NCBI GenBank assembly: GCA_947627285.1
Contig: CANQVL010000005.1
Span: 53,944 to 117,943 of the forward strand
From: an uncultured Oscillospiraceae bacterium
GTDB taxonomy: Bacteria; Bacillota; Clostridia; Oscillospirales; Oscillospiraceae
DNA length: 64,000 bases
Direction of reading: 5' to 3'
Positions 33,665-52,285 of this stretch are shown in pieces. Position numbers and translations under genes: made by a program. The notes below the pieces were generated by a model. That model searched no databases and was not told the DNA's origin. It saw nothing but the letters and a program-made list of their open reading frames with translations. Each line of letters opens with the position of its first letter. Position 1 is the stretch's first letter.

Positions 33665-35317
33665 TTATCCTCCCGCCAAATTCTCAAACCGCAGCCTTAT
33701 CTGCGCGGCTATTTCTCTTAGGGCGCGGGGGTTTACCTTTAGGACCTGGCGGTCGAAGGTGTAAAGGCCGTTTGTCTCGCCCTCCACGTCGGAAAGCTGT
33801 GTGTAGACGCAGCCGCACAGGCCGTTTTCCAGGGAGGGGAGCACCATCTCATCGTAAAGGCGGGTTATCCTTTCCGTCAACGCCTCCTCGCTGTCAAGCC
33901 GCTTGCCGTAGCCGTAATTTTTCCGGTCCTCCGCCGTGTGTCCCGGGACACGGCGGGAGAAGCCGCCGCACTCGGAGAGTATGAGAAATTTTCCCTTCCT
34001 TGCCCTTTTCAGGACCTTGGAGCGGAAGTAGACGTGCCGGCTGTCCGCGTCGCTCCTTTCCCCGGCGAACCAGCCGGAGGCGGAGATGAAGAACCGCGTG
34101 GGGTCGAGGCTCTTGAACCTGGTATAGAGCCTGTCGGAGTCGTACTGTCCCCAGCCCTCGTTGAAAATGGTGTAGCCAATCACGCAGGGGTGGTTTTTGA
34201 GCCTTGCTATCTCGCCCTCCGCCTGCCCCTCAAAGAGCTCGCGCCGCCTTTGGGAGACGGCGGAGCCTGTGTCGCTCCGGCGCGTGAAGCCCAGGGTGGG
34301 CAGGAGCGTGTCGCGGGGGAAGCTGTACTCCCCGGAATTTACCATGTCCTGGATAACAAGGATACCCAGGCGGTCGCAGGCGCAGTAAAACTCCTCCGGC
34401 TCTATCTTCACGTGCTTGCGCAGGGCGTTGAAGCCCAATGATTTGACGCGGAGGACGTCCTCCCCGTACCCGGAGGGGTCGGCGGGGAGAAAATGCCCGC
34501 CGGGGAAATAGCCCTGGTCCAGTACGGCGTGGAGGAATACGGGCTTTCCGTTGAGGCAAAGGCGCGTGACGCCGCCCCTGTCCTCAACAGTCACGGTCCG
34601 AAGGGCAAAGTACCCCTCCACCCGGTCGGTGGGGGTCTCCAGGGCGTAGCTGTATAGATACGGGTCCTCGGGCGTCCAGAGACGCGGCTCGGGGACAGTG
34701 ACAGCGATGGACCTGTCATGCGAGGTGACATCAATGCCCGCCTCGGGGACGGTGAGCCGGAGGGAGCCGGCGTCGGTATCCACATCAAAGGTGACGCCGT
34801 CAAGACCGGAGGTCATCTCCACGGAGCGCACGGCGCCGTGCGACGGTACAGCCTCCAGCCACACCGTCTGCCATATTCCGGAGACGGGGGTGTACCACAT
34901 TCCGTGGGGCTTTTTTGACTGCTTGCCGTAGGGGTAGTCGGTGGAGAGCGTGTCCACCGCCAGGACCCTCAGCTCGTTGGGACCGGGGCGGAGCGCGTCG
35001 GTTATGTCCGCGGAAAACGGCAGGTAGCCCCCCTCGTGGCGGCAGACGGCGGAGCCGTTCACAAGGACCCGGCAGCTCTGGTCCACGGCGCCCAGGTTGA
35101 GCATGAGTCGGCTGCCCTCCGGGAGAAAGCCCTCGGGAAGGGAAAAGGTGGCGCGGTAGTCCAGCTCCTCCGGCGCGCTGCCCGCAAAGCCGGACAGCGG
35201 CGCCTGGGGCGGGAAGGGGAGACGTATCTCCCTCCCGTTCAGCGTCCAGCCCTCGGAAACCGCCAAAAAGCTGTCCCTTCGCAGCTGCGGCCTCGGATAA
35301 GCCTCGTTCCAGCCCAT
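33665..35317 (-). CDS. Glycoside hydrolase family 2 enzyme
   Basis: 550 residues, cytoplasmic (no signal). An N-terminal sugar-binding jelly roll spans about 25-165 and a short Ig-like domain about 170-235. The barrel carries the acid/base Glu in IFNEGWGQYD and the nucleophile Glu in LSECGGF. Length fits compact GH2 members (beta-galactosidase, beta-glucuronidase or related); the exact sugar cannot be told from the motifs. No transporter is next to it. Confidence 0.87.
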   Translation of the reverse strand: MGWNEAYPRPQLRRDSFLAVSEGWTLNGREIRLPFPPQAPLSGFAGSAPEELDYRATFSLPEGFLPEGSRLMLNLGAVDQSCRVLVNGSAVCRHEGGYLPFSADITDALRPGPNELRVLAVDTLSTDYPYGKQSKKPHGMWYTPVSGIWQTVWLEAVPSHGAVRSVEMTSGLDGVTFDVDTDAGSLRLTVPEAGIDVTSHDRSIAVTVPEPRLWTPEDPYLYSYALETPTDRVEGYFALRTVTVEDRGGVTRLCLNGKPVFLHAVLDQGYFPGGHFLPADPSGYGEDVLRVKSLGFNALRKHVKIEPEEFYCACDRLGILVIQDMVNSGEYSFPRDTLLPTLGFTRRSDTGSAVSQRRRELFEGQAEGEIARLKNHPCVIGYTIFNEGWGQYDSDRLYTRFKSLDPTRFFISASGWFAGERSDADSRHVYFRSKVLKRARKGKFLILSECGGFSRRVPGHTAEDRKNYGYGKRLDSEEALTERITRLYDEMVLPSLENGLCGCVYTQLSDVEGETNGLYTFDRQVLKVNPRALREIAAQIRLRFENLAGG

Positions 35318-35379: not shown

Positions 35380-35408
35380 TTGACAGCAGACCGCGCAAAT
35401 GATAAAAT
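35380..35408 (+). promoter_or_regulatory. Promoter of the SNF2 helicase gene
   Basis: TTGACA, 17-base spacer, TAAAAT, about 105 bases before the start. The spacer end and -10 box (AATGATAAAAT) are shared with the promoter at 38783. Confidence 0.8.
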
Positions 35409-35513
35409 ATAGGCTGACAATGGAGCGCAACCAGAAGGTCCGGCGGTATATGCCGGACTTTTTGTCACTTGACCTGACCTAAAGCACAGATATAAAAGCG
35501 GGTGACCGAGACG

Positions 35514-38500
35514 ATGCTTGATGTTAAATTTATCAGGAGCCTCTTCAGCGCTCAGGATTACGCCAGGGGAAGGGACTATTATCTGAGGGACAGGGTGGAG
35601 AAGCTGGAGCGCACCGTCTCTGACGGGATCGTCATATATACATGCGCCGTGCGGGGGACCGAAATGTACCGGGTCAGTTTCGGCCTGACGGAAAAGGACG
35701 GGCAGACAAGGGCGGCTATGTACTGCACCTGCCCGAGATTCGCGGACCGCGGGGAGTGCAAGCACGTGGCGGCGGCAATGCTGAAGGCGGCGGAGGACAG
35801 CTCCGAGGGAGACGCGGAGCCGCCGAAGGCCGTATTACCTGACCCTGAAAAACCGAAGCGCGGGACAAACGCCCTTCGCGGGAGCGGAGGCACATCCGCG
35901 GGCGTTGACCGGCCCGCCGGACGGCTGACGGAGCAATATTTAAGCCTCTCAAGTCGCGCGGATATGACCGGTGAGGCGCGTCTGTCGCCCCTGCTCTCTC
36001 TGAGCCGCGACAACGGAGAATATCCGGGGCTCTACCTCTCCGTTGGAGTTACCAGGCTGTACGCGGTGAAGGATATTTTCGTGTTCCTCGAAAACGTCGC
36101 CCAGAGAAGGACCGTCGCCTACGGGAAAAATCTGACGCTGTTTCACGGGATCGAGAACTTTGACGCGCCATCCAGGGCCCTCATCGAGCTTTTGATGGAC
36201 GAATCCCGGGACTTCCGCCTTGTCCGCGCGCCCCGGAGAGGGTACTACGATCAGCCCTACGGCGCCGCGCGCGGGATGAAGGGCTCTTGCGTCCGGCTGG
36301 AGGGCTCCTCCTTCGACAGGCTTTTTGACATACTGCGGACATTTCCGCCGGAGCGCGGCTTAGAGCGGCTCCGGGACGGGGACCCGGCGGTGACGCTGAG
36401 CCTGTCGGAGAACAGAAGGGCGGTGAAGCTGTCCGTTGAAGCGCCGGAGGAGCTCCGCTTTTTCGGGAGCAGGACGCGTCTGTACGCGGATACCGGCGAC
36501 GAGCTCCTGCGGTGCTCTGACGGCTTCAGGGACTGGGTGTACCCGCTCCTGGCGGAGAGACCCCGGGTCATGAGCTTATCTAAGGATGATATGTCGGTAT
36601 TTTGCGGCTGCGCTCTGCCCAGGCTCAGAGAGCTCGTGACGGTGGAGGACCCGGAGGGGATAGGGGAGAAGTACCTCCCGGACAAGTGCGTACCGCGCTT
36701 TTATTTCGACCTGGACGGCGACGGGTCAGCCATGACGCTGGAGGTGCGTTTCCTCTACGGAGATACTGAGGTGATGCACGACGGATCCGGCGGCGGACAA
36801 AAAACGCTGAGGCGCGATACTCCGGCGGAGACAGGCGCGCTTCAATTCGCCCGGCGCTTTTTCCCGGAAAGAGACGCGTCCGGGGTATTCCGACTTTCCG
36901 GGGACGACGCCATATACGACCTTCTGGATACCGGAATGGACGCCTTTTTTGAGCGCGGGGAGGTCTTCATATCTGACCGCCTCCGGGGAAAGCGCCTCCG
37001 GCCCGCGCCGGCGGGCGTGGGCATATCTGTCTCCGACGGGACACTGCTTTTGGACATCGACACCGGGGAATTCCCTGCCTCCGAGCTGGAGGAGCTTTAC
37101 CAAAGCCTTTTGGAAAAGCGCCGCTACTACCGTCTGCGCGACGGGCGGTATCTGACGCTGGACGGCTCGGGCTATGAGACGCTGGCGGAGATGGCGCATA
37201 TGCTCAGGCTCTCCCCCGGCGAGCTTGAGAGCGGACACGCGAAACTCCCGGCGTACAGGGGCCTTTATATCGACAGCGTCCTCTCGGAGCGGGAGGATAT
37301 GCGCGTGGACCGGGACGCCAAATTCCGCGCCATGATCCGGGATTTCAAATCCCTTCCCGAGGGCGGATATGAGCCGCCGGAGGAGATGGACAAAATACTG
37401 CGGCCCTACCAGAGGGTGGGCTTTCGCTGGCTGAAGACGCTGGAGAGCTGCGGCTTCGGCGGCATACTGGCGGACGAGATGGGCCTGGGGAAGACGGTCC
37501 AGATGATCGCCTTCCTCCTGACGGTCCGCAGGGAGGTCACGGGCCTTCCCAATCTGGTGGTCTGCCCCGCGTCACTGATCCTCAACTGGATGGATGAGAC
37601 GGGCAGGTTTGCCCCCGGCCTTTCGGCAGCCGCCGTCATGGGGACGGCGGCGGAGCGGAGGCGGATACTGGAAAACGCCGGCGGCGCGGACGTGATAGTC
37701 ACCTCCTATGAGCTCCTGCGCCAGGACATCGCCCTTTACGCCGAGAGGGAGTTTTACTGCTGTGTCCTGGACGAGGGACAGCATATCAAAAACAGCTCCA
37801 CCCTTGGCTCAAAGGCTGTAAAACGCCTGCGGTGCCGCCAGCGGTTCATAATGACCGGGACGCCCATGGAAAACAGGCTCAGCGAGCTTTGGAACCTCTA
37901 TGATTTCCTCATGCCGGGGTATCTCTATTCGCACAACGCCTTTGTGGAGAAGCTGGAGAAGCCCGCCGTCAAAAGCGGGGACGCCGAGGCGCTGGAAAAG
38001 CTCCGGCGACTGGTTCTGCCGTTCATGCTCCGAAGGGTCAAAAAGGACGTCCTCCGGGAGCTGCCGCCGGTCATCGAGCACGTGCGCCGCGTGGCGTTGA
38101 CCGAGGAGGAGAGAAGGGTGTACCTTGCCACCGCCGCCCGGATACGCTCGTCCCTGGACGGGGGCGGAAAGCTCCAGATATTGGCGGCGCTCACAAGGCT
38201 GCGGCAGATCTGCTGTGACCCCGCCCTGTGCTATGAAAACTACGCCGGAAAGGCCAGCAAGCTGGAGGCGTGCTTGGAGCTTTGCGCCGGGATGACGGAG
38301 AACGGGCACCAGATCCTGCTGTTTTCCCAGTTCACCTCCATGCTTGACGTTTTGAGGCCGCGACTTGACGAGCTGGGGATCACCAGCTTTACCCTCCAGG
38401 GCTCCACGCCCAAGGAGAAGCGGGCGGAGCTTGTCAAAAGGTTCAACGACGGAGAGGCGCAGGTCTTCCTCATCTCCCTGAAGGCCGGCGGAACGGGCCT

Positions 38501-38762
38501 CAACCTGACCGCCGCCGACGTGGTAATACACTATGACCCGTGGTGGAACGCGGCTGTCCGCGACCAGGCCACCGGACGCGCCCATCGAATAGGACAGCGC
38601 TCGTGCGTTCAGGTCTATAAGCTGATCGCCCAGGATACCGTGGAGGAAAAAATAATGGCGCTCCAGGACAAAAAGGCCGAGCTCATGTCCGCCATCTCCT
38701 CCGGCGCCGAGGGCGACATACTGAATATGTCACGCGACGACCTCCTGGCGATTTTGACCTGA
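35514..38762 (+). CDS. SWIM zinc-finger SNF2-family helicase
   Basis: 1082 residues. Order: N-terminal SWIM zinc finger near 67-85 (YCTCPRFADRGECKHVAA); a long SNF2-associated region; the SNF2 ATPase lobe with Walker A ADEMGLGKT near 653-661, DEGQ box near 751 and MTGTPMENR; the second helicase lobe with LLFSQFTSMLD, GGTGLNLT and DQATGRAHRIGQ. It moves along or remodels DNA or nucleoprotein using ATP. I prefer ATG 35514 (GGGTGA 8 bases before) over GTG 35502. Clostridial chromosomes commonly carry such a stand-alone gene; its role is not settled. Confidence 0.92.
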   Translation: MLDVKFIRSLFSAQDYARGRDYYLRDRVEKLERTVSDGIVIYTCAVRGTEMYRVSFGLTEKDGQTRAAMYCTCPRFADRGECKHVAAAMLKAAEDSSEGDAEPPKAVLPDPEKPKRGTNALRGSGGTSAGVDRPAGRLTEQYLSLSSRADMTGEARLSPLLSLSRDNGEYPGLYLSVGVTRLYAVKDIFVFLENVAQRRTVAYGKNLTLFHGIENFDAPSRALIELLMDESRDFRLVRAPRRGYYDQPYGAARGMKGSCVRLEGSSFDRLFDILRTFPPERGLERLRDGDPAVTLSLSENRRAVKLSVEAPEELRFFGSRTRLYADTGDELLRCSDGFRDWVYPLLAERPRVMSLSKDDMSVFCGCALPRLRELVTVEDPEGIGEKYLPDKCVPRFYFDLDGDGSAMTLEVRFLYGDTEVMHDGSGGGQKTLRRDTPAETGALQFARRFFPERDASGVFRLSGDDAIYDLLDTGMDAFFERGEVFISDRLRGKRLRPAPAGVGISVSDGTLLLDIDTGEFPASELEELYQSLLEKRRYYRLRDGRYLTLDGSGYETLAEMAHMLRLSPGELESGHAKLPAYRGLYIDSVLSEREDMRVDRDAKFRAMIRDFKSLPEGGYEPPEEMDKILRPYQRVGFRWLKTLESCGFGGILADEMGLGKTVQMIAFLLTVRREVTGLPNLVVCPASLILNWMDETGRFAPGLSAAAVMGTAAERRRILENAGGADVIVTSYELLRQDIALYAEREFYCCVLDEGQHIKNSSTLGSKAVKRLRCRQRFIMTGTPMENRLSELWNLYDFLMPGYLYSHNAFVEKLEKPAVKSGDAEALEKLRRLVLPFMLRRVKKDVLRELPPVIEHVRRVALTEEERRVYLATAARIRSSLDGGGKLQILAALTRLRQICCDPALCYENYAGKASKLEACLELCAGMTENGHQILLFSQFTSMLDVLRPRLDELGITSFTLQGSTPKEKRAELVKRFNDGEAQVFLISLKAGGTGLNLTAADVVIHYDPWWNAAVRDQATGRAHRIGQRSCVQVYKLIAQDTVEEKIMALQDKKAELMSAISSGAEGDILNMSRDDLLAILT

Positions 38763-38782: not shown

Positions 38783-38811
38783 TTGACACCGGGCGGCGGG
38801 AATGATAAAAT
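38783..38811 (+). promoter_or_regulatory. Promoter overlapping a GC-rich hairpin
   Basis: TTGACA, 17-base spacer, TAAAAT. A perfect nine-base stem GCCGCCCGG / CCGGGCGGC (38769-38797), probably the end of the SNF2 transcript, encloses the -35 box in its loop. It would drive the gene at 38885. Confidence 0.75.
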
Positions 38812-38852: not shown

Positions 38853-38872
38853 TGACGTGACCTTGGTGAAAA
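38853..38872 (+). repeat. Conserved leader motif, copy 1
   Basis: TGACGTGACCTTGGTGAAAA, 12 bases before the ATG of the next gene. It is identical to the motif at 39628 and differs by one base (T for C) from that at 41270 over the shared 19. Unlike the other two copies it is not preceded by a tRNA half. Confidence 0.75.
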
Positions 38873-38884: not shown

Positions 38885-39484
38885 ATGGCTGAATATAGAT
38901 TGCCGAAGGACTTTTTTGAAAAAAATCTTATTAAACCGTACTCGACGCCCCAGTTTTTTCTGGTTACCCAGGTCATTGAAGGACACGAGGAGCTGAACAG
39001 TAAGCTTAAAAAATTGATTGCGCAGTTCGACGAGGAGTTGACGGAAAAGGACGAGGCACAGCTGCGGCTTATTGAGGAAACGAACGATCCGGCGGCACTG
39101 GTCGACTTGATGCGTAAGAAATTACGTTCGCCTAATATGGGAACCTATATCGGTAAGGTCCTGGCACATCAGAGCGAATGTTTGCCGCTTTTGTTAAAAC
39201 GATACTTGACCAGCGGTCATGATGCGTTCATTGAGGCGTCGGCAAGAGTTTTGGTCGCTGCGGATGAGAGCTGCGTCCGGCAGCTCCGGGAAATGTATGA
39301 CCGGATAAGAAATCCTTACGCCAGAGCCTTCGCCTGCCTTGTTTTCGGACATCGCGGGATGAAGGACCAGCTTGCGTTTCTGGTCGGCGAATATGAGAAA
39401 TTCAAAAGAAATTATATTGACGAAAGCTTTGAGCAGTTTCCACTCGCCGCCATATATCTGCTGAGCGGAAAATCTATTATTTAA
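38885..39484 (+). CDS. HEAT-like helical protein, function unknown
   Basis: 199 residues, all helical by composition, with repeating pairs of amphipathic helices (DPAALVDLMRKKL, HQSECLPLLLKRYL, HDAFIEASARVLVAAD, CVRQLREMYDRI) that suggest HEAT-type repeats. Cytoplasmic; no catalytic motif. It starts at ATG after AGCGGTGAGATA and follows the conserved leader motif. The base composition drops at about this gene. It could be the last chromosomal gene or the first accessory one. Confidence 0.7.
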   Translation: MAEYRLPKDFFEKNLIKPYSTPQFFLVTQVIEGHEELNSKLKKLIAQFDEELTEKDEAQLRLIEETNDPAALVDLMRKKLRSPNMGTYIGKVLAHQSECLPLLLKRYLTSGHDAFIEASARVLVAADESCVRQLREMYDRIRNPYARAFACLVFGHRGMKDQLAFLVGEYEKFKRNYIDESFEQFPLAAIYLLSGKSII

Positions 39485-39497: not shown

Positions 39498-39564
39498 GCG
39501 CCCGTGGTAAAATTGGTATGCACGATGGATTAGGCGCCGTTACCTAAGTGAAGGGTTTTGAGTT
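39498..39564 (+). pseudogene. Degenerate tRNA-Leu(UAG)-like sequence
   Basis: Begins GCGCCCG then TGGTAAAATTGGTATGCA, as in a tRNA acceptor strand and D-arm, and has an ATTAGGC anticodon loop giving UAG. A variable arm and the start of a T-arm (GAAGGGTT) follow. The T-loop and the 3' acceptor strand matching CGGGCGC are missing. Probably a decayed or truncated tRNA-Leu. Confidence 0.5.
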
Positions 39565-39589: not shown

Positions 39590-39627
39590 GCGGGTATGGC
39601 GGAATTGGCAGACGCGCAGGATTTAGG
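39590..39627 (+). pseudogene. 5' half of tRNA-Leu(UAG), cut at the anticodon loop
   Basis: GCGGGTATGGCGGAATTGGC and the following 18 bases form acceptor strand, D-arm and the 5' side of the anticodon arm up to TTTAGG. The sequence then leaves tRNA and enters the leader motif. No matching 3' half (TACCCGC) was found downstream to 41232. Confidence 0.75.
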
Positions 39628-39647
39628 TGACGTGACCTTGGTGAAAA
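39628..39647 (+). repeat. Conserved leader motif, copy 2
   Basis: TGACGTGACCTTGGTGAAAA joined directly to the tRNA half; 16 bases before the HNH gene. AGGT at the junction and ACCT within the motif form a short inverted repeat. Confidence 0.8.
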
Positions 39648-39663
39648 GTGGAGTGGTTTGTTT

Positions 39664-40452
39664 ATGACAATACGTGATGACTTTTCAGATAGCGTAAAGG
39701 AACAGATAAGATTTTTGAGCGGATACCGCTGTTCCAATCCGGATTGCCGTGAAAAGGTTTTCTATATCAGCCCGGAAACAAACAGGAAAATCAATCTGGG
39801 CGTGATAGCTCATATTTGTGCGGCTTCACCCGGAGGACCACGCTACGATTATTCCATGACGGGGGAGGAACGGAGAGGGGAAGGCAATGGAATACTTCTG
39901 TGTGCAAAGTGCGCATCGCTTATTGACAGGGACATGGATGCTTATCCTGTTGGGCTGCTAAGAAATTGGAAAAGAATGGCGTATGCCAATGCAAAAAAAG
40001 AATTTGTTTTTCTTTCTACGCCAGATGATTTGACACGGGCGCTGTCTGTAATCCGAGAACTGGTACGTGTGTTCCTTTCCTCATATAGGACGCATGGGAA
40101 AGTTGTACCTGAGGCAAGGTTTCGCGGTTACGCCAGCATGATGTTCAGGTTGTTTTTTGAGGATCTTCCTGTCGAACATGATTATGATAATAAGGTCATG
40201 TGCTGTCTTAGGACACTGGATATGATTTCCTTTAATGTATTGGAAAATGTCAGCGTAAGGGTTTCGCATTTTGATCGGAGTTTTCCCAGACGGTACGATC
40301 TTTTTATGGAGGAGTTGGGAACGTACTCAATCGATATCCAGAAGAACAAAGGAAGAATTCTGGATGTTATTGAGGAGACGACGCGTTGTATGTTTATGTC
40401 CGAGGAAGCCTTTTGTATGAATAAAGAAGAGAATATTTCACATCAGTCATAA
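39664..40452 (+). CDS. HNH-like zinc-finger nuclease-domain protein
   Basis: 262 residues. The N-terminal 110 residues form a probable HNH-type fold: paired cysteines CSNPDC near 23-28 and CAKC near 80-83, AHICAASPGGPRYD near 54-67, and NGILLCAKCASLIDRD. This kind of HNH module often sits at the front of accessory or defense proteins. The remaining 150 residues are helical and unrecognised. ATG follows GTGGAGTGG and the tRNA-half/motif leader. It converges with, and overlaps by 10 bases, the sigma-like gene on the other strand. Confidence 0.7.
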   Translation: MTIRDDFSDSVKEQIRFLSGYRCSNPDCREKVFYISPETNRKINLGVIAHICAASPGGPRYDYSMTGEERRGEGNGILLCAKCASLIDRDMDAYPVGLLRNWKRMAYANAKKEFVFLSTPDDLTRALSVIRELVRVFLSSYRTHGKVVPEARFRGYASMMFRLFFEDLPVEHDYDNKVMCCLRTLDMISFNVLENVSVRVSHFDRSFPRRYDLFMEELGTYSIDIQKNKGRILDVIEETTRCMFMSEEAFCMNKEENISHQS

Positions 40453-41066
40453 GAGGAGCCGCAGTATAACCGCAGAAAATTCCGGCGGAGCTTAAAAATT
40501 GCGTTGTTGTACATTTCAGATGTCTGCTTGCGGGTAAGATTATATTTCTTCGCGATCTTTTGAGAAGAAAGCTGATAAAAAATACGAAAGATAACGATGT
40601 CCTGCTCCACTACAGGTAAATCGTAAAAGGCCTGCCACAAACATCGGTCTCTTTCCAAGTAGATTAGAATCATAAGAGGATCAGAGTCGGCAACTTGTGA
40701 TTTGGCGCGGCAGTTGAGCAAAAACGCATTTCGATGGGCTGTGATAATGCGGGCGGACTGATTGCGAACAATGTTCTTCGCGTAACCAGAGACCCAACTT
40801 CGAAATCTGCCCTGTCCACGGAAACGATATAATTGCTCAAAGCATCGTTTGAAAGCCTCACTGACGGCCTCAGCGTAGTCTGAGGTACTCATCAATTTCC
40901 GATAGTCAGCCTGTCTTGCCGCATGCATAACAAAGGGCAGAGATTCTTAATAAAGGGTGTTCCAGGAGTCCGTATTCCCGTCAATTATATCCCTTACCAA
41001 GTAAAAGTCTTTCATCCGAAAATCTTCGGGTGGTTCGCTATAATGAATGACTTTTGACATATTCAT
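40443..41066 (-). pseudogene. Sigma-70-like factor gene broken by an in-frame TAA
   Basis: An ATG at 41066 with AGGAGG reads MNMSKVIHYSEPPEDF and on to DSWNTLY, then TAA at 40949-40947. The same frame continues ESLPFVMHAARQADYRKL into a normal sigma region 2 (RFRGQGRFRSWVSGYAKNIV) and region 4 (LPVVEQDIVIFRIFYQLSSQ). The intact form would be about 207 residues with Glu (GAA) where TAA stands. A shortened product from ATG 40928 or 40892 would lack region 2.1. Such sigma factors are common on integrative elements. Confidence 0.75.
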
Positions 41067-41102
41067 AAGCCTCCTGAAATTCTATGGGATAGAATGACAG
41101 GT

Positions 41103-41131
41103 ACTTTACAACCAATATCAGAGGATGTCAA
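41103..41131 (-). promoter_or_regulatory. Promoter of the sigma-like gene
   Basis: TTGACA, 17-base spacer, TAAAGT reading leftward, 36 bases before the ATG at 41066. Confidence 0.6.
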
Positions 41132-41230
41132 TATGAAGATTTGACTTTCATAAATGTTTTAGTTAAAATTCATAATGCGCATTCGTAGAGAAATCAGTGA
41201 TAGGATTTTTGAGGTACACAAAGAGAAAAC

Positions 41231-41269
41231 ATGCGGGCATGGTGTAATGGCAGCCACGGTGGTCTTAGG
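41231..41269 (+). repeat. 5' half of tRNA-Leu(UAG); left copy of a 39-base direct repeat
   Basis: AT plus the first 37 bases of the tRNA-Leu at 42760, ending CTTAGG inside the anticodon loop. It is identical over all 39 bases to 42758-42796. A weaker match continues upstream (41180-41200 against 42635-42657). Together they frame the FRG gene, as attachment sites frame an inserted element. Confidence 0.85.
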
Positions 41270-41288
41270 TGATGTGACCTTGGTGAAA
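41270..41288 (+). repeat. Conserved leader motif, copy 3
   Basis: TGATGTGACCTTGGTGAAA, joined directly to the tRNA half; 26 bases before the ATG of the FRG gene. Confidence 0.8.
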
Positions 41289-41314
41289 GTGTATCAAATG
41301 CATAGTGAAAGGGG

Positions 41315-41863
41315 ATGATTATCATCTTTTCTCGCTTTTTTTCGAATTTGTGTAAGATTGCGGATATCCGACAGGCATTTGATAATGTATGTTTGAAGAA
41401 ATTGGCGCTTGATGGTTATGTTGATATGAATGCCTACATAAGCGGTCGAATAAAGAAAGACGATATGTACGCGAGCCTTAAAACTTATAACTCAAAATAT
41501 ACCAATCTTTATTCAAATTCGTATCCTAAACAGAACACGGTCCTTGAGGTTTGGAGTAAAGCAATTTGGAAAGACTCCAGCAGAGATGATGAATCTGTTC
41601 CTGAGCTTACCTTTGAGGAATCCGTTGCTATTGTTAACTGGGTGTACAGATCCCTGAATAATACTCGAGATAGGACTGATTTTACTAGGGAGCTTTTTGA
41701 ATATTTCAAAGACTTAGAATATTTTAAAATCCCATATGGAGCACTGGAAAAAATTAGTTTTAATAGAGGCGTTGTATATAATGCGGAGAAAGTAGAGGTT
41801 TACTTTTTCTCTTCTGTATCCGGGGTCAGCACTTTTATATCCTCATTAAAAAAGCGGGACTGA
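41315..41863 (+). CDS. N-terminal part of a split FRG-domain protein
   Basis: 182 residues, ATG after GAAAGGGG. The body is helical and unrecognised, but the last residues (VSGVSTFISSLKKRD) are the usual opening of an FRG domain. TGA at 41861 is in the same frame as the next gene, whose ATG follows at once. So this is one gene interrupted by a nonsense codon (for example GGA to TGA), or a natural split with TGA-ATG coupling. Low GC suggests transfer. Confidence 0.7.
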   Translation: MIIIFSRFFSNLCKIADIRQAFDNVCLKKLALDGYVDMNAYISGRIKKDDMYASLKTYNSKYTNLYSNSYPKQNTVLEVWSKAIWKDSSRDDESVPELTFEESVAIVNWVYRSLNNTRDRTDFTRELFEYFKDLEYFKIPYGALEKISFNRGVVYNAEKVEVYFFSSVSGVSTFISSLKKRD

Positions 41864-42625
41864 ATGTTATTCTTCCGTGGACATTCCAATGCCAATTACT
41901 CCTTATGCCCGTCTATTTTGCGTTCATCTCATTTGCAGCAGAATGAGAGTAAATTATATCACGAGCTTCTTATTGAATGCCCGGATGATTTTGAAAAGTG
42001 CGATTCGCATTTGGAAAAATTGGTTAAGATGCAACATTACGGCTTGCCTACTCGCCTGCTTGATATAACAAGGAACCTTTTAGTCGCGCTTTATTTTGCG
42101 TGTGAAAGTGAGCCGGAAGCATACGGGGAGCTTGTTTTGGTTTCAGCAAGAGAACAGGATATCAAATATCCCCAAAGTGATACAGTTTCCATCTTGGCAA
42201 GTCTTCCTGTTTTTCCTTATGAAAAGCAACGGGATTTTTATAATCTTGCAGTTAATACTGATATTTCCGATAGGCAGTTCAATACAAAAGCTTCTCGATT
42301 GATCCGCGAGGTTCAGATAGAGAAACCCGCGTTTCAGGCGGAAATAAAAAAAGAGGACGTATTAAGCAATTATATTGTTTGCGCCCTGAAGAATAACGGA
42401 AGGATCGTGAAACAGGACGGGGCGTTTATTCTTTGCGGTTTAGCGGCGGGACACGGCTCGTTGGAAAGCTTTCGATATAAGGAACATGACAAAAAGATTA
42501 TTATTCTTCTTGATAAAAAGATACATTTTCTCGAACAATTAGAAACGTTTTCAATCAATAGAGCTTCCCTGTTTCCGGAAATAGAATGTGTAGCCGAGTA
42601 TCTTAAGGAAAAATATTCAATGTGA
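41864..42625 (+). CDS. FRG-domain protein (C-terminal part of the split gene)
   Basis: 253 residues opening with MLFFRGHSNANYSLCPSI, the FRG block, then QHYGLPTRLLDITRNLLVAL, the second conserved block. FRG domains are found in phage- and element-borne proteins and in some defense systems; biochemical function is unknown. It begins directly after the TGA of the preceding frame and has no ribosome site of its own, so expression would rely on coupled re-initiation. Confidence 0.78.
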   Translation: MLFFRGHSNANYSLCPSILRSSHLQQNESKLYHELLIECPDDFEKCDSHLEKLVKMQHYGLPTRLLDITRNLLVALYFACESEPEAYGELVLVSAREQDIKYPQSDTVSILASLPVFPYEKQRDFYNLAVNTDISDRQFNTKASRLIREVQIEKPAFQAEIKKEDVLSNYIVCALKNNGRIVKQDGAFILCGLAAGHGSLESFRYKEHDKKIIILLDKKIHFLEQLETFSINRASLFPEIECVAEYLKEKYSM

Positions 42626-42759
42626 TTTCGAGTACATTTTCGTAAAGAAAGCAGTGAAGAATTTATTTATTTCAATGTTAAAACGTTGCTTGCCATTGTT
42701 CTTCCGGTTATGTTATTATAAAAAGTGTATCCGGAGGAATGGTGGTAATATTACAATAT

Positions 42760-42843
42760 GCGGGCATGGTGTAATGGCAGCCACGGTGGTCTTAGGAGCC
42801 ACTGGAGAGATCCGTGCAGGTTCGAATCCTGTTGCCCGCACCA
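42760..42843 (+). tRNA. tRNA-Leu (anticodon UAG)
   Basis: 84 bases including encoded CCA. Acceptor GCGGGCA/TGCCCGC with discriminator A, D-arm, anticodon loop CTTAGGA, a variable arm GGA-GAGA-TCC of class II type, and a T-arm with TTCGAAT. The first 37 bases are duplicated at 41233-41269. This is the complete copy at the right edge of the FRG unit. Confidence 0.93.
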
Positions 42844-43394: not shown

Positions 43395-43427
43395 GGATAA
43401 TGAGAAGATAATAAGGAGCAAATGATT

Positions 43428-44699
43428 ATGTTACTTCAATTCAATTTTAAAAACTATAAATCGTTTAGAGATGATACTACTTTAGATTTGACTGCAACAA
43501 AAATCTCAGAATTTAATAATCATATAATATCAATCGCAAATGAACGCGTACTTCCTGTTGCATCTATTTTTGGTGCAAACGCGAGTGGCAAATCTAATGT
43601 GCAAGAGGCCTTTAGGTATATGGCCACATATGTTATTCATTCTTTAAATTATGGCGGAGATGAGTCATCATCCAAAAAGAAAAAATCCGAGTTTTTTAAA
43701 CCTACGCCGTTCCTTTTCGATACAAAGAGTAAAACAGATGAATCTTCATTCGAAGTATACTTTATTGATTCTGAAGAAAACGGTGCTAAAACTTATAACT
43801 ATGGATTTACTGTGAACAATGCCGGCGTCTGTGAAGAGTGGCTAAATTATAAATCTAAGTCTTCCAGAGGTGTTTACAAAAAAATTTTCTACAGAAGCCG
43901 AGATGAATATGATTTTTCTGGACTTCCGGCTAATAGTCAAGAAAATCTGAAAATTGCACTAGAAAAAGAAACACTTGTGGTATCATTGGGTGCAAAACTT
44001 AAAATTGCAAAATTAAAATTTGTGCGCGATTGGTTTTTGAATAACGACTTTGCTGATTTTGGAAAACCAATCGAAAACTTTTTCCTTTCTCAGTTGATTC
44101 CAGGAGGATTTGCTGAAAGCAAAGATGTGCAGAAAAAGGTGGTAGATTATTTTTCAACATTTGATCCGTCAATAATTGGCTTCAATGTAGAAGTCCTTAA
44201 AACTGACGATGACGAAGATGAGCATTTAAAAATAGATGCCATTCACCAAATGAACGACTCTGATCAAACGGCTTCTATTCCTCTTCAGCATGAATCTGCA
44301 GGTACACTTAAGATGTTTGCTTTATATCCCATGCTGCAGGATGTCTTATCGAATGGTGGCGTTCTCTTTATTGATGAGTTGAATGCTCGATTGCACCCAT
44401 TGCTTGTGAGAACATTTATTATTACCTTCTTGGATCTCAATATTAACACAAAGCACGCGCAATTGATTTTTACCTCACACGATTCATGGCAATTAAATGG
44501 TAGTATGTTGAGGAGGGATGAAATTTGGTTTACAGAAAAAAATTCATCCGGGGTATCTAATCTGTATTCACTTGCCGATTTTGTTGATGAAGATGGTGTA
44601 AAAATTCGAAAAGATGAAAATTACGAAAAGAACTATTTACTAGGAAAATACGGTGCTATTCCTACTTTAAAACATTTCGATATGTTCAAGGAGGAATAA
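43428..44699 (+). CDS. RloA/AbiL-like AAA15-family ATPase
   Basis: 423 residues. ABC/SMC-like ATPase with FNFKNYKSFRDDT at the N-terminus, Walker A GANASGKS at 49-56, a long middle region, and Walker B with LFIDELNARLHPLL near 305-320. These OLD/RloA-type ATPases pair with an RloB or Toprim partner in abortive-infection and PARIS-like defense. I use ATG 43428, 9 bases after AAGGAG; ATG 43422 is too close. It is followed at 3 bases by the RloB-like gene. Confidence 0.83.
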   Translation: MLLQFNFKNYKSFRDDTTLDLTATKISEFNNHIISIANERVLPVASIFGANASGKSNVQEAFRYMATYVIHSLNYGGDESSSKKKKSEFFKPTPFLFDTKSKTDESSFEVYFIDSEENGAKTYNYGFTVNNAGVCEEWLNYKSKSSRGVYKKIFYRSRDEYDFSGLPANSQENLKIALEKETLVVSLGAKLKIAKLKFVRDWFLNNDFADFGKPIENFFLSQLIPGGFAESKDVQKKVVDYFSTFDPSIIGFNVEVLKTDDDEDEHLKIDAIHQMNDSDQTASIPLQHESAGTLKMFALYPMLQDVLSNGGVLFIDELNARLHPLLVRTFIITFLDLNINTKHAQLIFTSHDSWQLNGSMLRRDEIWFTEKNSSGVSNLYSLADFVDEDGVKIRKDENYEKNYLLGKYGAIPTLKHFDMFKEE

Positions 44700-44702
44700 T
44701 TA

Positions 44703-45350
44703 ATGCCGAAACCTGAAAGAATTGGTAACCGAAAGACAAGAGAGCAATTGTACAAGCGGCGCATACCAAAGCTGGGATATTACTTTATTGTTACAGATAC
44801 AAAAGAGACTGAGCAAAATTATATGTATGGACTAAGAGATTCCATTCCTCAGGAATTACAAGGTAAATTAGTCATTAAAGTTATAAAGACCAAGACAAAA
44901 AATCTTGTAGAGGAAGCGTTGAATCTTGCGTCTCTGAATCCTCAATACGGTGAGATATGGATTATCTTTGATAGAGATCAGGTTAAAAATTTTGATAGTA
45001 TCATATCAGAAGCAATATCCAAAGGTATCAATGTCGGGTGGACAAATCCATGTATTGAAGAATGGTTTAGTGCCTATTTCGGCGCTATGCCTACATATAA
45101 CAGTTCTGTAGCTTGCTGTGAAGGATTTGAGCAAATCTTCGAACGTATAGCGCGGCAAAAATATATTAAATCCGATCCGGCAGTTTATGAAAAGTTGAAT
45201 TGCTTCGGCGATGAGAAAAGAGCGGTTAAACTTGCCGCCCAAAAAATGCACGAGCATAAAACAAATGGCAAGGACAAGCCGTCAGAAATGTGTCCGGGCA
45301 CAACCATTCATTTGTTAGTGGACGAAATAAAAAAGAAAGTAAATGTTTAG
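44703..45350 (+). CDS. RloB-family protein
   Basis: 215 residues. Opens with a basic segment (ERIGNRKTREQLYKRRIPK), then a TDTKETEQNYMYGL block and IWIIFDRDQVKNF, where acidic residues fit the Toprim-like active site of RloB. WTNPCIEEWFSAYF is another family block. RloB is the presumed nuclease effector triggered through its ATPase partner; the target is not known from sequence. ATG follows AGGAGGAATAATTA. Confidence 0.82.
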   Translation: MPKPERIGNRKTREQLYKRRIPKLGYYFIVTDTKETEQNYMYGLRDSIPQELQGKLVIKVIKTKTKNLVEEALNLASLNPQYGEIWIIFDRDQVKNFDSIISEAISKGINVGWTNPCIEEWFSAYFGAMPTYNSSVACCEGFEQIFERIARQKYIKSDPAVYEKLNCFGDEKRAVKLAAQKMHEHKTNGKDKPSEMCPGTTIHLLVDEIKKKVNV

Positions 45351-47388: not shown

Positions 47389-48642
47389 TTATGCTTTCAA
47401 TTTCTCCATGATGATCTCGTCGATTTCCGCCTCAAGCTCCGCGACCCTATTCAGCATGGACAGGCGTTTGGCGTTGATGACGGGGGCTTTGAGGGACAGG
47501 AGCTTTTGGTATGCCTGGGTGGTCAAGAGAGCGTTTTGTGCATTGTATAGAAGCTCGGATAGCTTTTCGTATAAGGCGCTGTCGATAAACTCCTCGTGGA
47601 TACGGTGGGAGGGGCACACGGCCTTGCCGTGGCGCATATAAGTTTTGCAGATGTACTCAACGCGTGTTCTCCCGTTCCAACGGCGGTTGATGGCAACAAG
47701 AGGAGAATGGCAGTCGGCGCACTCAAGAAGACCGGCGTAGCGGTGACGGGACGGGGTAGAGGACGCAGCTTTGGAAGGAGCTTTGGAGAGAAGATCCTGC
47801 GCTGCCAGCCAGTCTTCTCTTGATACTATCGGAGGGTAGAAGTTCTCGTGGCGGTAGTATTCGACTTCGGGGACATAGCTCGTTTTGCCGGAGGTTATCT
47901 CGCGCCGGTGGTTTGTAAGCGTCCCGATGTAGCTCTCGTCCTGAAGGATGTTCTTGACGCTGGTGAAGCTCCACATGTAAGGTTTGGTGTTTCCGAAATG
48001 GCGGTTGTATAGCTCCAATTGGAGCTGAGCGGGAGTCTTGCGGCGCTCGGCGGTGAGCTGCCGCGCGATCTGAATTAGTCCAATGCCGGAGAGATACGTG
48101 CTGTAAATGTGCCTGACGGTATCGGCGGCCTCCTCAATGATCTCCACCGTGCCGGTGTTCTTGTTTTTCCAATATCCGAAAGGAGGGATGATAACAAGTC
48201 CGTCCTTTTGCTTTTGCCTGAAGCCTGCACGGATCTTGGTCCCGATGTCCTTTGCGTAGAAGTCGTTCATCAGGACCCGGATACCGACGATGAGATCGTC
48301 ATTTTCGGTAAGGGTATTCAGCCCCTCGGTTACAGAAATCACGGCGATATTGCGCTCACGCAGATACTCGATAAACAGTGCTGTCTGCGTATTATGGCGG
48401 CCAAGTCGGGACAGGTCCTTGACGAGTACGGCTTCTATGCTCCCGTTTTCCGCCGCCTCGGAAAGCTTTCGCAATCCGGGGCGAGGGAAGGTCATGCCGC
48501 TGATGTTGTCATCAGAGGACGAACCGACAACATTGCTACCGTTCTGCTTTGCGTATTCTCGGCAGATACGCTCCTGATTCAGAAGTGAATTTTGCTCCGG
48601 GTCATCGTCATTGGACAGCCGTGAGTAAATCCATACTCTCAT
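47389..48642 (-). CDS. Large serine recombinase (second of a pair)
   Basis: 417 residues from ATG 48642 (GTG 48651 is an alternative). The resolvase domain has catalytic Ser in IYSRLSNDDD with the SLLNQERICREY block, then VKDLSRLGRHNTQT. The recombinase domain follows (FGYWKNKNTGTVEIIEEAAD), then a zinc ribbon (LLECADCHSPL, then CKTYMRHGKAVCPSH) and a short coiled coil. It overlaps the preceding recombinase gene by 35 bases. Shorter than typical TnpX (about 500-700) at the C-terminus. Confidence 0.88.
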   Translation of the reverse strand: MRVWIYSRLSNDDDPEQNSLLNQERICREYAKQNGSNVVGSSSDDNISGMTFPRPGLRKLSEAAENGSIEAVLVKDLSRLGRHNTQTALFIEYLRERNIAVISVTEGLNTLTENDDLIVGIRVLMNDFYAKDIGTKIRAGFRQKQKDGLVIIPPFGYWKNKNTGTVEIIEEAADTVRHIYSTYLSGIGLIQIARQLTAERRKTPAQLQLELYNRHFGNTKPYMWSFTSVKNILQDESYIGTLTNHRREITSGKTSYVPEVEYYRHENFYPPIVSREDWLAAQDLLSKAPSKAASSTPSRHRYAGLLECADCHSPLVAINRRWNGRTRVEYICKTYMRHGKAVCPSHRIHEEFIDSALYEKLSELLYNAQNALLTTQAYQKLLSLKAPVINAKRLSMLNRVAELEAEIDEIIMEKLKA

Positions 48643-50299
48643 TTTCCTCACTCCATTGTTTCAGAATTATAGGCGCGATACGGTCATAGTTGAAATCCAT
48701 GGAGGCCCAGGCGTCAATTACATCGTCGCCGTCAAGGATAAACCCATGGGTTCTGAATGGCGCTTTAAGATGTATGTCGATGTCCAATTTACCGTCACGC
48801 TCAGATATATAAATTTTCTTCACGAGCAGTCGGAGGTTCGCATCGGAAATACGCCCTTCACTGAGTATACTGTCCATGAGCTTTATATCGCGTCTCAAAG
48901 TTGATTGACGTTGCTTCAGGGTGTCCTCGATGCTGTTAAGAGCCGCGATTTGTTTCTTGAGCTCCTCGATTTCAGCCTCGCGCTTGCTGATCATGCGGTC
49001 ATAGCGTTCGATGTTGGCCTTGTCCCGGATACGCTCCATTAGTATCACCTCCATTTCGTCCTCCAGAGTGTCTATCCTTTCGGACAGGCTTTTGAGATTC
49101 GCCTCCACTGAGGATTGCCTTGGTATCCAGCTGTCGATCAGCTTTTGAAGTCCCGCCCAATTTTGCTCGTAAAGTACCTTGGTGCTTTTCAGCTCATCTA
49201 TGATCAGCTTGTCCAATATCTCCTCCTGGATCACGTGGGACGTGCAGTACTCCTTGCCGTAGCGGTGATATGTGTCACAGACATATTGGACACGTTCGCC
49301 GCTTTCTTTTTTTATACGCTTGCCAACAAATGCCCTGCCGCAATCGGCACAGCGGAGGAGGCCGCCGTATCGAAGCAGACGCTTTCCGTGAGCGGCACGG
49401 GCTCTGGATTCCTTGCGCTGTGCCATAATCTCCTGCACCTGCTGCCACACCTCATAGCTTATGATGGCCGGGACAAAGCCCTCATGGCGGAATTGCTCAT
49501 CGGGTGTCGTCAGGCGGAAGGTCTTGTTAATTTTGTTCCTTTCACTTTTATGACAGATGAGGGTACCGGTGTAAGTTTCGTCCTGAAGGATACGGGAAAT
49601 CATCGTTGCCTCCCAAATGTTTTTCCTTCGGATGCCGTTGTAAGTGCAAGGCTCGCTTTTTCGCAGGAGCTGAAATTGTATCTGAGCGGGAGTTTTTCGC
49701 TTCTCCAGGTTAAGTCTTTTAACGATGGCTTTCAGACCGCTGCCGGATAAATACATGGAATAGATGAGACGTGCCGTCTCGGCTGCTTCTTCGACGACCA
49801 CGACCTGTTTGGTGTTCTTATCCTTGAAGTAGCCGAAGGGCGGGATCATTACGATGCCTTCCTTTTGCTTCTGGCGAAAGCCCGTTCGGACACGGCGGCT
49901 TCCGTCGCGGGCGTAGAAGTCATTGACCAGCCCCTTGAAGCCGATGATCAGGTCATCGTTTTCGTTGAAGGTGTCGATGTTCTCCGTGGCGGACACCACG
50001 CGCACATTGTGCTCGCGAAGGTAGTCTATGAACAGGGCTGTCTGCGTTCTGTGCCTCCCGAGGCGGGAGAGGTCCTTTACGACGATAACATCAATGAGCC
50101 CCGCTTCCACGACCTCGTAGATTTTGTCGATGCCCTCACGGTTGAAATGCATACCGCTGACGTTATCATCAAAGGACTCGCCAACTATTTCATACCCACG
50201 GGATACGGCGAAGTCATAGATGATTTTGCGCTGGTTCGTCAGAGAATTAAGCTCCTCATCCTCATCGCGGGAGAGCCGGTAATAAAGCCAACTTCGCAT
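48608..50299 (-). CDS. Large serine recombinase (first of a pair, TnpX-like)
   Basis: 563 residues from ATG 50299, placed after GGAGGACAT. The resolvase domain has YYRLSRDEDEELNSLTNQRK and VVKDLSRLGRHRTQT. The recombinase domain has IPPFGYFKDKNTKQVVVVEE, the zinc ribbon LLRCADCGRAF with CDTYHRYGKEYCTSH, and a coiled coil at about 395-470. It probably excises and inserts the mobilizable element. Two paralogous recombinases in tandem suggest that both are needed, or one controls direction (inference). Confidence 0.9.
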   Translation of the reverse strand: MRSWLYYRLSRDEDEELNSLTNQRKIIYDFAVSRGYEIVGESFDDNVSGMHFNREGIDKIYEVVEAGLIDVIVVKDLSRLGRHRTQTALFIDYLREHNVRVVSATENIDTFNENDDLIIGFKGLVNDFYARDGSRRVRTGFRQKQKEGIVMIPPFGYFKDKNTKQVVVVEEAAETARLIYSMYLSGSGLKAIVKRLNLEKRKTPAQIQFQLLRKSEPCTYNGIRRKNIWEATMISRILQDETYTGTLICHKSERNKINKTFRLTTPDEQFRHEGFVPAIISYEVWQQVQEIMAQRKESRARAAHGKRLLRYGGLLRCADCGRAFVGKRIKKESGERVQYVCDTYHRYGKEYCTSHVIQEEILDKLIIDELKSTKVLYEQNWAGLQKLIDSWIPRQSSVEANLKSLSERIDTLEDEMEVILMERIRDKANIERYDRMISKREAEIEELKKQIAALNSIEDTLKQRQSTLRRDIKLMDSILSEGRISDANLRLLVKKIYISERDGKLDIDIHLKAPFRTHGFILDGDDVIDAWASMDFNYDRIAPIILKQWSEENESMDLLTAVQ

Positions 50300-50403
50300 A
50301 TGTCCTCCTTTCCGCGTGAACGCTTTTTTGCTGGGACACAACATACCACAACAGTTTTGGAATAGCTATCTGAATATTCGGAAACGGTATAATTTCTACA
50401 CAT

Positions 50404-51901: not shown

Positions 51902-52209
51902 CAGCGCCGCTCCTGGTCGGACAGGATGTAGAGCTGTCCGTAGATTTTGTCCAGCTTGTCCACCATAGCCGAAAGGTCGGGCGAGGTGAACCGTCCCTCG
52001 TTGGCGAAGATGGTGAGCTGGTTCAGGTTGCGTCCGATGCCGCGTACCTCGTGGACCATCTCCCGGAGACCGTCCACCACCACGACCTTGTGCCGCATGG
52101 CCGCCGCGCGGATGTAGGCGCTAAGGGTCATCTGAGCCGAGGCCGCTTTCTCCGAGATGGCTTGTATCTGCTCGTCAGTGAACCTGACGGTGATGCGATT
52201 CTCTTTCAT
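51901..52209 (-). CDS. mobC: Relaxosome accessory protein MobC
   Basis: 102 residues from ATG 52209, after GGAGGAAG. Ribbon-helix-helix N-terminus (ENRITVRFTDEQIQAISEKA) and the MobC family block VRGIGRNLNQLTIFANEG. Binds oriT and helps the relaxase open the DNA. Stop overlaps the relaxase start by one base. oriT should lie just upstream (52210-52413), but no nick motif could be assigned. Confidence 0.85.
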   Translation of the reverse strand: MKENRITVRFTDEQIQAISEKAASAQMTLSAYIRAAAMRHKVVVVDGLREMVHEVRGIGRNLNQLTIFANEGRFTSPDLSAMVDKLDKIYGQLYILSDQERR

Positions 52210-52285
52210 TTCTTCCTCCGTTCCTGAGTGGGTGCGGGCTTCTGCCCGCAATTTGTGCCGTCCGACAAAGTCGGACAGGCGCTCT

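What the first reader, a model, noticed from the sequence alone, without database searches (positions are those of the whole stretch)
39590..42843. Genes placed behind 5' halves of tRNA-Leu(UAG): a possible tRNA-targeted cassette array
Seen: at 39590 and 41233 a tRNA-Leu(UAG) 5' half runs to the TTAGG of the anticodon loop and is then joined to the same 19-base motif, followed within 16-26 bases by one accessory gene (HNH; FRG). The two halves differ from each other (GCGGGTA and GCGGGCA acceptor types), so they are not simple local duplicates. The FRG unit ends at an intact tRNA-Leu(UAG) sharing 39 identical bases with its left half. Inference: single-gene cassettes enter at the anticodon loop, rebuild a full tRNA at one end, and may place the cargo under the tRNA promoter, a layout that resembles integron capture.
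Basis: partly seen in the sequence, partly recalled or inferred. Interest (0 to 1): 0.8.

Follow-up and report, generated by a model that had tools for sequence, protein, structure and literature searches.

The report
Elements that swap a leucine tRNA
In many gut Clostridia, mobile elements have cut a leucine tRNA gene in two at its anticodon loop while bringing an intact spare copy that likely replaces it, and in two genome pairs the spare of one genome is the cut tRNA of the other, so arrivals leave an ordered row of small genes, several resembling phage-defence genes, that are predicted to be read from the tRNA promoter.

Summary
The motif behind each tRNA-Leu(UAG) 5' half is the left end of a site-specific mobile element. 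The right end is its inverted repeat, joined to the 3' half of the split tRNA. In six genomes both ends lie on one contig (6.4 to 32 kb apart); in these and in the window's own genome (two contigs), joining the flanks rebuilds a tRNA-Leu(UAG). The implied attachment site is near-palindromic, as expected for large serine recombinases (LSRs). An LSR gene pair and a relaxase gene accompany the array in 8 genomes. In two genome pairs the spare tRNA of one genome is split in the other at TTAGG: the spare is the next target. Distant LSR relatives sit beside tRNA-Leu(CAG) or (UAG) with the same design. The closest known case is phage tRNA-dependent lysogeny (tyrosine integrases). LSR-driven tRNA swapping that leaves an ordered array behind a tRNA promoter looks like a new variant. 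Catalysis, transcription and tRNA dependence are inferred.

The parts
33665..35317 (-). GH2 glycosidase gene, conserved neighbour of the native tRNA-Leu(UAG) site in relatives
   Evidence: Pfam GH2 domains; tRNA-Leu or 5' half within about 500 bp upstream in L051, L053, L054, L055, L056, L059, L062 of the 22 loci read
35380..35408 (+). promoter-like sequence at the place where relatives have the native tRNA promoter
   Evidence: 11 of 12 consensus bases; a pattern match only; position by comparison
35502..38762 (+). SNF2-type helicase gene; probably oldest cargo of the array (inferred; also between GH2 and the array in G031)
   Evidence: Pfam; G031 layout
38783..38811 (+). promoter-like sequence in front of the first motif
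38853..38871 (+). P' motif (left element end) without a recognisable tRNA half
38885..39484 (+). 199-aa cargo gene (weak HEAT-like, below Pfam cut-off), same unit in G011, G021, G031
39498..39534 (+). decayed tRNA-Leu 5' half
39535..39553 (+). variant P' motif, opens a gene-less unit of 55 bp
39590..39627 (+). tRNA-Leu(UAG) 5' half, GCGGGTA type, ends TTTAGG
39628..39646 (+). P' motif
39664..40452 (+). HNH-type endonuclease-like cargo gene
   Evidence: PADLOC PDC-M68A 1.3e-25; related unit in G697 and G664
40443..40928 (-). sigma-70 ECF-like ORF inside the HNH unit, opposite strand
41233..41269 (+). tRNA-Leu(UAG) 5' half, GCGGGCA type, ends CTTAGG
41270..41288 (+). P' motif
41315..42625 (+). 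FRG cargo gene, here in two in-frame ORFs (41315-41863, 41864-42625) separated by one stop
   Evidence: single ORF of 432 aa in G012 and 447 aa in G010
42760..42843 (+). intact carried tRNA-Leu(UAG) with encoded CCA: the likely replacement tRNA and next target
43422..45350 (+). AbiLi / RloB (AbiLii)-like gene pair, defence cargo of the element body
47389..48651 (-). large serine recombinase, 420 aa (LSR420)
   Evidence: Pfam Resolvase, Recombinase, Zn_ribbon_recom; closest solved sequence TnpX
48608..50344 (-). large serine recombinase, 578 aa (LSR578)
50579..52341 (-). relaxase MobA and NikA/MobC-like mobilization genes
52867..53487 (-). AAA_25 helicase-like gene, with matches in other element bodies

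Best explanation
The array is a stack of left-end scars of mobile elements, likely moved by large serine recombinases, each inserted in the anticodon loop of tRNA-Leu(UAG) and each bringing an intact tRNA-Leu(UAG) that would replace the one it cut. Shown by sequence: (1) the left end P' (TGNYGTNACCNNNGTG..) follows a tRNA 5' half and the right end P, its inverted repeat, precedes the matching 3' half; (2) joining the flanks gives back a tRNA-Leu(UAG); (3) an intact tRNA-Leu(UAG) lies inside the left end, 51 bp to 1.7 kb from the last P', followed in 8 genomes by two LSR genes and a relaxase gene; (4) in two genome pairs the intact tRNA of one genome is the split tRNA of the other, with similarity ending at TTAGG. 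Inferred: the LSR pair recombines an attP (P-TT-P') with the anticodon-loop attB. The cell survives because the carried tRNA is made, probably from the host tRNA promoter that now reads through the 5' half. The next element integrates in the carried tRNA, so units are ordered from oldest (next to the promoter) to newest. Inner right ends are lost by homologous recombination between similar element bodies. Genes lying between a left end and the next tRNA, several resembling defence genes, are thereby placed under the tRNA promoter.
For: Both ends: L018 and L013 right ends (T/C)TTCACCAAGGTCACAGCACC|TTTAGG|3' half; L136 and L138; exact right-end pattern in 6 of 400 family genomes, all 6 of which also have left ends. 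Flanks joined give tRNA-Leu(UAG) by ARAGORN in 7 of 7 genomes: G012, G270, G143, G628, G386 and G685 on one contig each, G000 across two contigs. Implied attP 34-38 of 44 positions palindromic in 7 of 7, none of 5000 shuffles each. Empty and filled sites: in G005 the tRNA is uninterrupted, and 8,077 bp beside the own genome's 3' half are 96.7% identical to G005 up to the insertion point; G021 intact vs G011 split (147/160 identical before the cut, 18/60 after); G664 intact vs G697 split (152/160 before, 11/60 after); BLAST similarity ends at the cut base in the first pair and one base past it in the second. LSR420 (E<=1e-60) in 3 of 34 same-genus genomes, all at this locus. Tandem LSRs accompany the array in 8 genomes: G000, G270, G143, G697, G449, G628, G685 (13 kb away), G564 (one of the two matches in pieces). 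Distant LSR relatives: order search, 7 of 394 genomes; tRNA-Leu near the LSR in all but G258, whose contig is cut. Class search, 9 loci outside the own genome: intact tRNA-Leu beside the LSR in 8, none in L194 at a contig edge; a 5' half upstream in 7 of the 8. Anticodons of half and carried tRNA agree, UAG with UAG or CAG with CAG, in L170, L173, L191, L192, L197, L198, L199. Terminal tRNAs 12/12 paired in 29 of 29. The other own-genome tRNA hits of the half model are tRNA-Leu CAG and CAA.
Against: No circular form or intact attP was found (viral contigs only). LSRs were not found within the fetched 11-20 kb beside 8 of 16 family arrays (2 more contigs too short), nor in the genus search (E<=1e-60) for G006, G010, G011, G013, G019, G021 and G031, so many arrays must be decayed or moved in trans. 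In G012, G143 and G628 there are two left ends but one right end, which needs the unproven step of losing inner right ends. In L193 and L195 the half's anticodon loop (TTCTGC) no longer matches CAG; in L196 no half was found; in G354 no half stands beside the tRNA. In the own genome the 3' half is on another contig and the oldest 5' half is lost, so the element there is not contiguous. No expression or essentiality data.
Confidence: 0.85

Rival explanations
1. Integron-like capture: single-gene circles carrying a hybrid site (tRNA 5' half plus P') are inserted one by one into the intact tRNA, without whole elements.
For: Units are compact: of 50 closed units in 31 loci, 19 hold an ORF of 78 aa or more and 31 are gene-less stretches of 51-287 bp; in 18 of the 19 the longest ORF is on the tRNA strand. 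Inner right ends are missing in 3 of 3 contiguous elements with two left ends. The same unit recurs in different contexts, e.g. the 157-aa unit 94% identical in G697 and G664.
Against: The rebuilt tRNA would join the unit's 5' half to the previous tRNA's 3' half; the previous half fits the terminal 3' half in only 6 of 29 loci. Serine integrases are reported not to recombine attL with other sites without a directionality factor (PMC3783163, abstract and passages). Complete two-ended elements exist.
Confidence: 0.12
2. A DDE transposon with terminal inverted repeats that happens to prefer the anticodon loop.
For: Ends are inverted repeats of about 20 bp; a 4-base TTTA duplication could be read at the ends.
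Against: Insertion is at the same base in the tRNA variants seen and across genera; no DDE transposase among the neighbours scanned with Pfam, whereas LSRs recur.
Confidence: 0.03
3. A tyrosine integrase acts at the anticodon loop (TTTAGG as overlap) and the LSRs belong to a different element.
For: Tyrosine integrases are the usual users of tRNA genes (Islander abstract in the listing); a 6-base common core fits.
Against: An LSR gene lies near the carried tRNA inside and outside the order, antiparallel to it in the 10 family and genus loci and in the 11 more distant loci with both; nearly palindromic attP with a central TT. No tyrosine integrase matched among the 9 + 10 proteins scanned; this was not a full search.
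Confidence: 0.05
4. The halves are functional RNA leaders or split tRNA genes that are joined in trans (the 5' half's tail and the 3' half's leader are complementary).
For: P and P' are reverse complements, as in archaeal split tRNAs (recalled).
Against: Some halves next to the promoter are decayed or lost (38853, G019, G024, G001), an intact tRNA of the same anticodon is carried in the 29 loci tested, and uninterrupted sites exist in relatives.
Confidence: 0.02

Closest known systems
tRNA-dependent lysogeny of actinobacteriophages (Guerrero-Bustamante and Hatfull 2024, PMC10865867; abstract and sections 10 and 11 read)
   Different: There: phages, tyrosine integrases, tRNA-Lys, Ile2 or Leu-CAA, no stacking described in the parts read. 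Here: serine recombinases, relaxase-bearing elements of Clostridia, tRNA-Leu(UAG) or (CAG), carried tRNA next to the left end, repeated insertion into the carried copy, cargo left between promoter and tRNA.
ssrA genomic islands of Dehalococcoides (McMurdie 2011, PMC3146451; passages read)
   Same: Two serine recombinases (DsiB, DsiA), an RNA gene as target, several tandem islands with scars; their integration module even holds a conserved tRNA-Gly-like locus.
   [quoted passage not shown] the tRNA-Gly-like locus is about 4.4 kb from attL and is not of the target gene's kind.
Tn4451-type and other serine-recombinase mobilizable elements (IMEs; review PMC5704250, passages read)
   Same: LSR plus relaxase; the LSR's best solved relative is TnpX.
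   Different: The review states that site-specific serine IMEs disrupt dispensable genes; here the target is a tRNA gene and a substitute is carried.
Integron gene cassettes (recalled)
   Same: Row of compact single genes behind one promoter, growing at one side of a fixed site.
   Different: Serine recombinase; junctions are tRNA 5' half plus P', so each unit ends in a tRNA 5' half.
SCC elements with CcrA/CcrB (recalled; NCBIfam sub-cutoff hits)
   Same: Pair of LSRs, one fixed chromosomal site, composite elements.
   Different: Target gene and tRNA replacement; both LSRs score far below the Ccr family cut-offs.

Membership tests
Large serine recombinase element | Recombinase with Resolvase, Recombinase and zinc-ribbon domains | tested here: met
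   both LSRs
Large serine recombinase element | Near-symmetric attP of about 45-50 bp around a central dinucleotide; [quoted passage not shown]
   34-38 of 44 symmetric in 7 of 7, core TTTAGG; attB itself 12 of 46 symmetric
Large serine recombinase element | Recombination activity of the LSR on these sites | not testable with these tools
   no assay
Integrative and mobilizable element | Relaxase in the element between both ends | tested here: met
   G628: MobA-like match between left and right end; G270 relaxase by Pfam; window MobA and NikA/MobC
tRNA-dependent integration (as in tRNA-dependent lysogeny) | Insertion splits the tRNA and does not rebuild it at either end | tested here: met
tRNA-dependent integration (as in tRNA-dependent lysogeny) | Element carries a tRNA of the same anticodon | tested here: met
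   29 of 29 UAG loci; in the 9 distant loci with a half, 7 agree and the half is changed in L193 and L195
tRNA-dependent integration (as in tRNA-dependent lysogeny) | Carried tRNA is required for viability of integrants | not testable with these tools
   only that the other own-genome tRNA hits of the half model are tRNA-Leu CAG and CAA
tRNA-dependent lysogeny proper | Temperate phage with tyrosine integrase | tested here: not met
   serine recombinases and relaxase; the exact motif is not in viral contigs
Integron | IntI tyrosine recombinase next to the array | tested here: not met
   recombinases found beside the arrays are serine type; not searched for IntI by profile in every locus
Integron | attC hairpin sites between cassettes | tested here: not met
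   junctions are tRNA-Leu 5' half plus P'
SCC element | CcrA, CcrB or CcrC above family cut-off | tested here: not met
   95 bits vs cut-off 700 for CcrA

The most novel reading that the evidence does not exclude
Every arrival adds one unit at the far end of a row that starts at the host's tRNA promoter. The row is then an ordered, expressed record of past insertions, used as a platform for phage-defence genes across a family of gut Clostridia, with the host locked in by its need for the carried tRNA.
Probability: 0.5. Interest if true: 0.86.

Novelty: new variant of a known kind. Interest (0 to 1): 0.76.

Why it matters
It shows mobile elements that take over a tRNA gene and would thereby make themselves hard to lose, outside phages and with a different recombinase class. 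It suggests how single defence genes can be gathered in order behind a strong, always-on promoter. It also predicts matched LSR, attP and attB sets with tRNA anticodon loops as targets, and it makes a testable claim: the order of units is the order of arrival. My seven answered literature searches did not turn up a serine-recombinase case with a carried tRNA that replaces the target; most subscription papers are not in that library.

Tried and rejected
Rfam at relaxed threshold: only the intact tRNA is a credible hit. Motif in viral contigs: none; intact attP in viral contigs: none. A whole-collection motif scan gave 27 of 31 stretches with no tRNA half; this narrow spelling of the motif is genus-bound, and the looser spelling was needed to see the family. 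In one search, 33 of 400 genomes matched; of the 30 whose locus I read, 26 (15 genera by my count of the table) have a tRNA-Leu half and 4 (L142, L146, L157, L160) do not; G750, G718 and G562 had no fetched locus. The reversed-pattern control gave 32 hits by my count against 47 listed hits of the pattern, so the tRNA half, not the motif alone, is what counts. Rejected: transposon with target duplication (the CC next to the right end is the same in G000 and G012, so it belongs to the element); hybrid tRNA rebuilding; split tRNA genes. LSR against plasmids gave one partial match in Subdoligranulum variabile (24% of the query); LSR578 against phage records gave only matches below 60% identity (306 records). 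PMC10083194 (an LSR survey) has no 'tRNA' in its main text. G354 shows no clear half beside its tRNA and G258's contig is too short. The 113-aa ORF at 46658-46999 that looked to me like a recombinase remnant has no Pfam match.


Full report
What is in the window. Three exact copies of TGAYGTGACCTTGGTGAAA lie at 38853, 39628 and 41270, against a mean of 0.01 in shuffles, and a decayed copy lies at 39535. The last three follow tRNA-Leu 5' halves that end in the anticodon loop at TTAGG; the one at 38853 follows a promoter-like stretch with no clear half. The row ends at one intact tRNA-Leu(UAG), 42760-42843. Behind it come AbiL-like genes, two large serine recombinases (LSRs) pointing back at the tRNA, and a relaxase.

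Left and right ends. A fourth copy in the own genome is inverted and sits against the lone 3' half of a tRNA-Leu on another contig. The same arrangement closes a 12.9-kb stretch in G012. Read together, the motif is the left end (P') and its inverted repeat the right end (P) of an element whose insertion point is in TTTAGG of the anticodon loop. The relative G005 has the uninterrupted tRNA between the GH2 gene and the GH32 gene that flank the two pieces in the own genome; the 8,077 bp on the GH32 side are 96.7% identical to G005 right up to the insertion point. Across the family an exact right-end pattern hits 6 of 400 genomes, all six of them genomes with left ends. Joining the flanks returns a tRNA-Leu(UAG) in 7 of 7 genomes; six of these have both ends on one contig, the own genome is split over two contigs, and there the oldest 5' half is lost, so the half used was the one at 39590. 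The implied attP is 34-38 of 44 positions palindromic around a central TT in all seven, reached by none of 5000 shuffles each. A large, nearly symmetric attP with a dinucleotide crossover and an unlike attB fits what is described for serine integrases (PMC3783163, passages read).

The recombinase. Within the genus the 420-aa LSR (E<=1e-60) is in 3 of 34 genomes, each time at this locus: G000 and G012 intact, G002 broken up. In other genera of the family a tandem LSR pair accompanies the array in G270, G143, G697, G449, G628, G685 (13 kb from the tRNA) and G564 (one match in two pieces). Of the 16 family loci examined, 6 have the pair, 8 do not within the 11-20 kb fetched, and 2 contigs are too short. 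More distant single-LSR relatives were found by an order-wide search (7 of 394 genomes at E<=1e-110) and a class-wide search (9 of 391 genomes). These loci were found by LSR, not by tRNA. A tRNA-Leu lies near the LSR in G200, G354 (2.3 kb away) and G371 and right beside it in 8 of the 9 class loci outside the own genome; the ninth, L194, is at a contig edge. In G200, G371 and 7 of those 8 class loci a 5' half stands upstream. The anticodon of half and intact tRNA agree (UAG with UAG or CAG with CAG) in 7 of these 9; in L193 and L195 the half has changed in the loop. L196 and G354 show no half there. This was the strongest independent test of the idea.

Carried tRNA, not rebuilt tRNA. If a cassette only supplied a new 5' half, the terminal tRNA's 3' half should fit the preceding half. 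It does in 6 of 29 loci (in 3 of the 6 because the halves are identical), whereas the terminal tRNA's own halves fit perfectly in 29 of 29 (acceptor and anticodon stems; one search had 6 of 25 and 25 of 25). So the intact tRNA travels as a complete gene. In the own genome the other tRNA hits of the half model outside this locus are tRNA-Leu CAG and CAA, so the carried gene is probably the only tRNA-Leu(UAG); a full tRNA inventory was not made.

The carried tRNA is the next target. G021 ends in an intact tRNA where G011 has the same sequence split and continues with P' and a further gene. Before the cut 147 of 160 bases agree, after it 18 of 60, and the BLAST alignment ends at the base of the cut. 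G664 and G697 show the same (152 of 160, then 11 of 60; the alignment ends one base past the cut). The window, G011 and G021 share the promoter-near part (199-aa unit, decayed half, 55-bp unit) and differ further out, as expected for growth at the far end. Some halves near the promoter are decayed or lost (38853, G019, G024, G001), which fits greater age; I did not measure decay along the arrays systematically. I infer that inner right ends are lost by recombination between similar element bodies; the own genome still holds a second, diverged copy of part of the body on contig C1 (77-86% identical pieces). This step is not shown.

Cargo. In 31 loci I delimited 50 units from P' to the next half or tRNA: 31 are gene-less (51-287 bp) and 19 hold an ORF of 78 aa or more; in 18 of these 19 the longest ORF is on the tRNA strand. 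Recognised cargo: HNH (window, G697, G664), FRG (window, G012, G010), GIY-YIG with DUF4357 (G019, its half shortened), the 199-aa gene (window, G011, G021, G031; by eye a relative in G024, without Pfam match) and a 157-aa unit (G697, G664, G538). PADLOC links HNH, FRG and GIY-YIG to candidate (PDC) or known defence families. Six further array proteins (157-aa unit and the L175, L176, L187, L149 and L155 units) gave nothing above a cut-off in Pfam or PADLOC. In several loci the first half lies behind a TTGACA-like and TATAAT-like pair (by eye). That cargo and tRNA are read from there is likely but untested.

Comparison. Phages with tRNA-dependent lysogeny use the same trick with tyrosine integrases (PMC10865867, abstract and sections 10 and 11). 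Dehalococcoides ssrA islands stack by a serine recombinase at a tmRNA gene, and carry a tRNA-Gly-like locus of unknown role (PMC3146451, passages). A review of mobilizable elements says that site-specific serine IMEs disrupt dispensable genes (PMC5704250, passages). I found no report of serine-recombinase elements that replace the tRNA they split, in seven answered searches of an open-licence library. I therefore file it as a new variant of a known kind.

Limits. No circular form was found. Counts of family genomes with real junctions (26 of the 30 whose locus I read) depend on reading the tRNA half by eye and by pattern.

Noticed in passing
window 41861-41863: The FRG gene of the window is cut by one in-frame stop into ORFs of 182 and 253 aa, while G012 and G010 have one ORF of 432 or 447 aa; described only.
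   Followed up: partly
window 40443-40928, minus strand: A sigma-70 ECF-like ORF lies on the opposite strand inside the HNH unit, an exception to one-gene, one-strand units in the window.
   Followed up: partly
window 46658-46999: By eye this 113-aa ORF resembles the C-terminal part of another serine recombinase, perhaps a remnant of an older element; Pfam gives no match.
   Followed up: partly
window 8429-8695, 13141-13241, 23344-23565: A repeated sequence of 100-220 bp (85-86% identical copies, both orientations) occurs in the window; a weaker match (71-73%) lies near the G012 array.
   Followed up: no
L181 (G386) 561-6950: A 6.4-kb two-ended element with no match to the LSRs or relaxase of the window; it holds histidine kinase, D-Ala-D-Ala-ligase, VanY and alanine-racemase family genes, a glycopeptide-resistance-like set. 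It would have to be moved in trans.
   Followed up: partly
L174 (G697) 11040-14190: The longest array seen: six left ends in 3 kb before one intact tRNA, with two copies of the 157-aa unit, one shortened.
   Followed up: partly
L135 10375-12912; L134 6042-10358: Large genes right behind the carried tRNA: a SIR2-STAND protein (Avs5-like) and a 1438-aa protein with no Pfam match.
   Followed up: partly
L086 (G031) 4626: A degenerate P'-like motif precedes the SNF2-type helicase gene, suggesting that this helicase is itself an old cargo unit, as in the window.
   Followed up: partly
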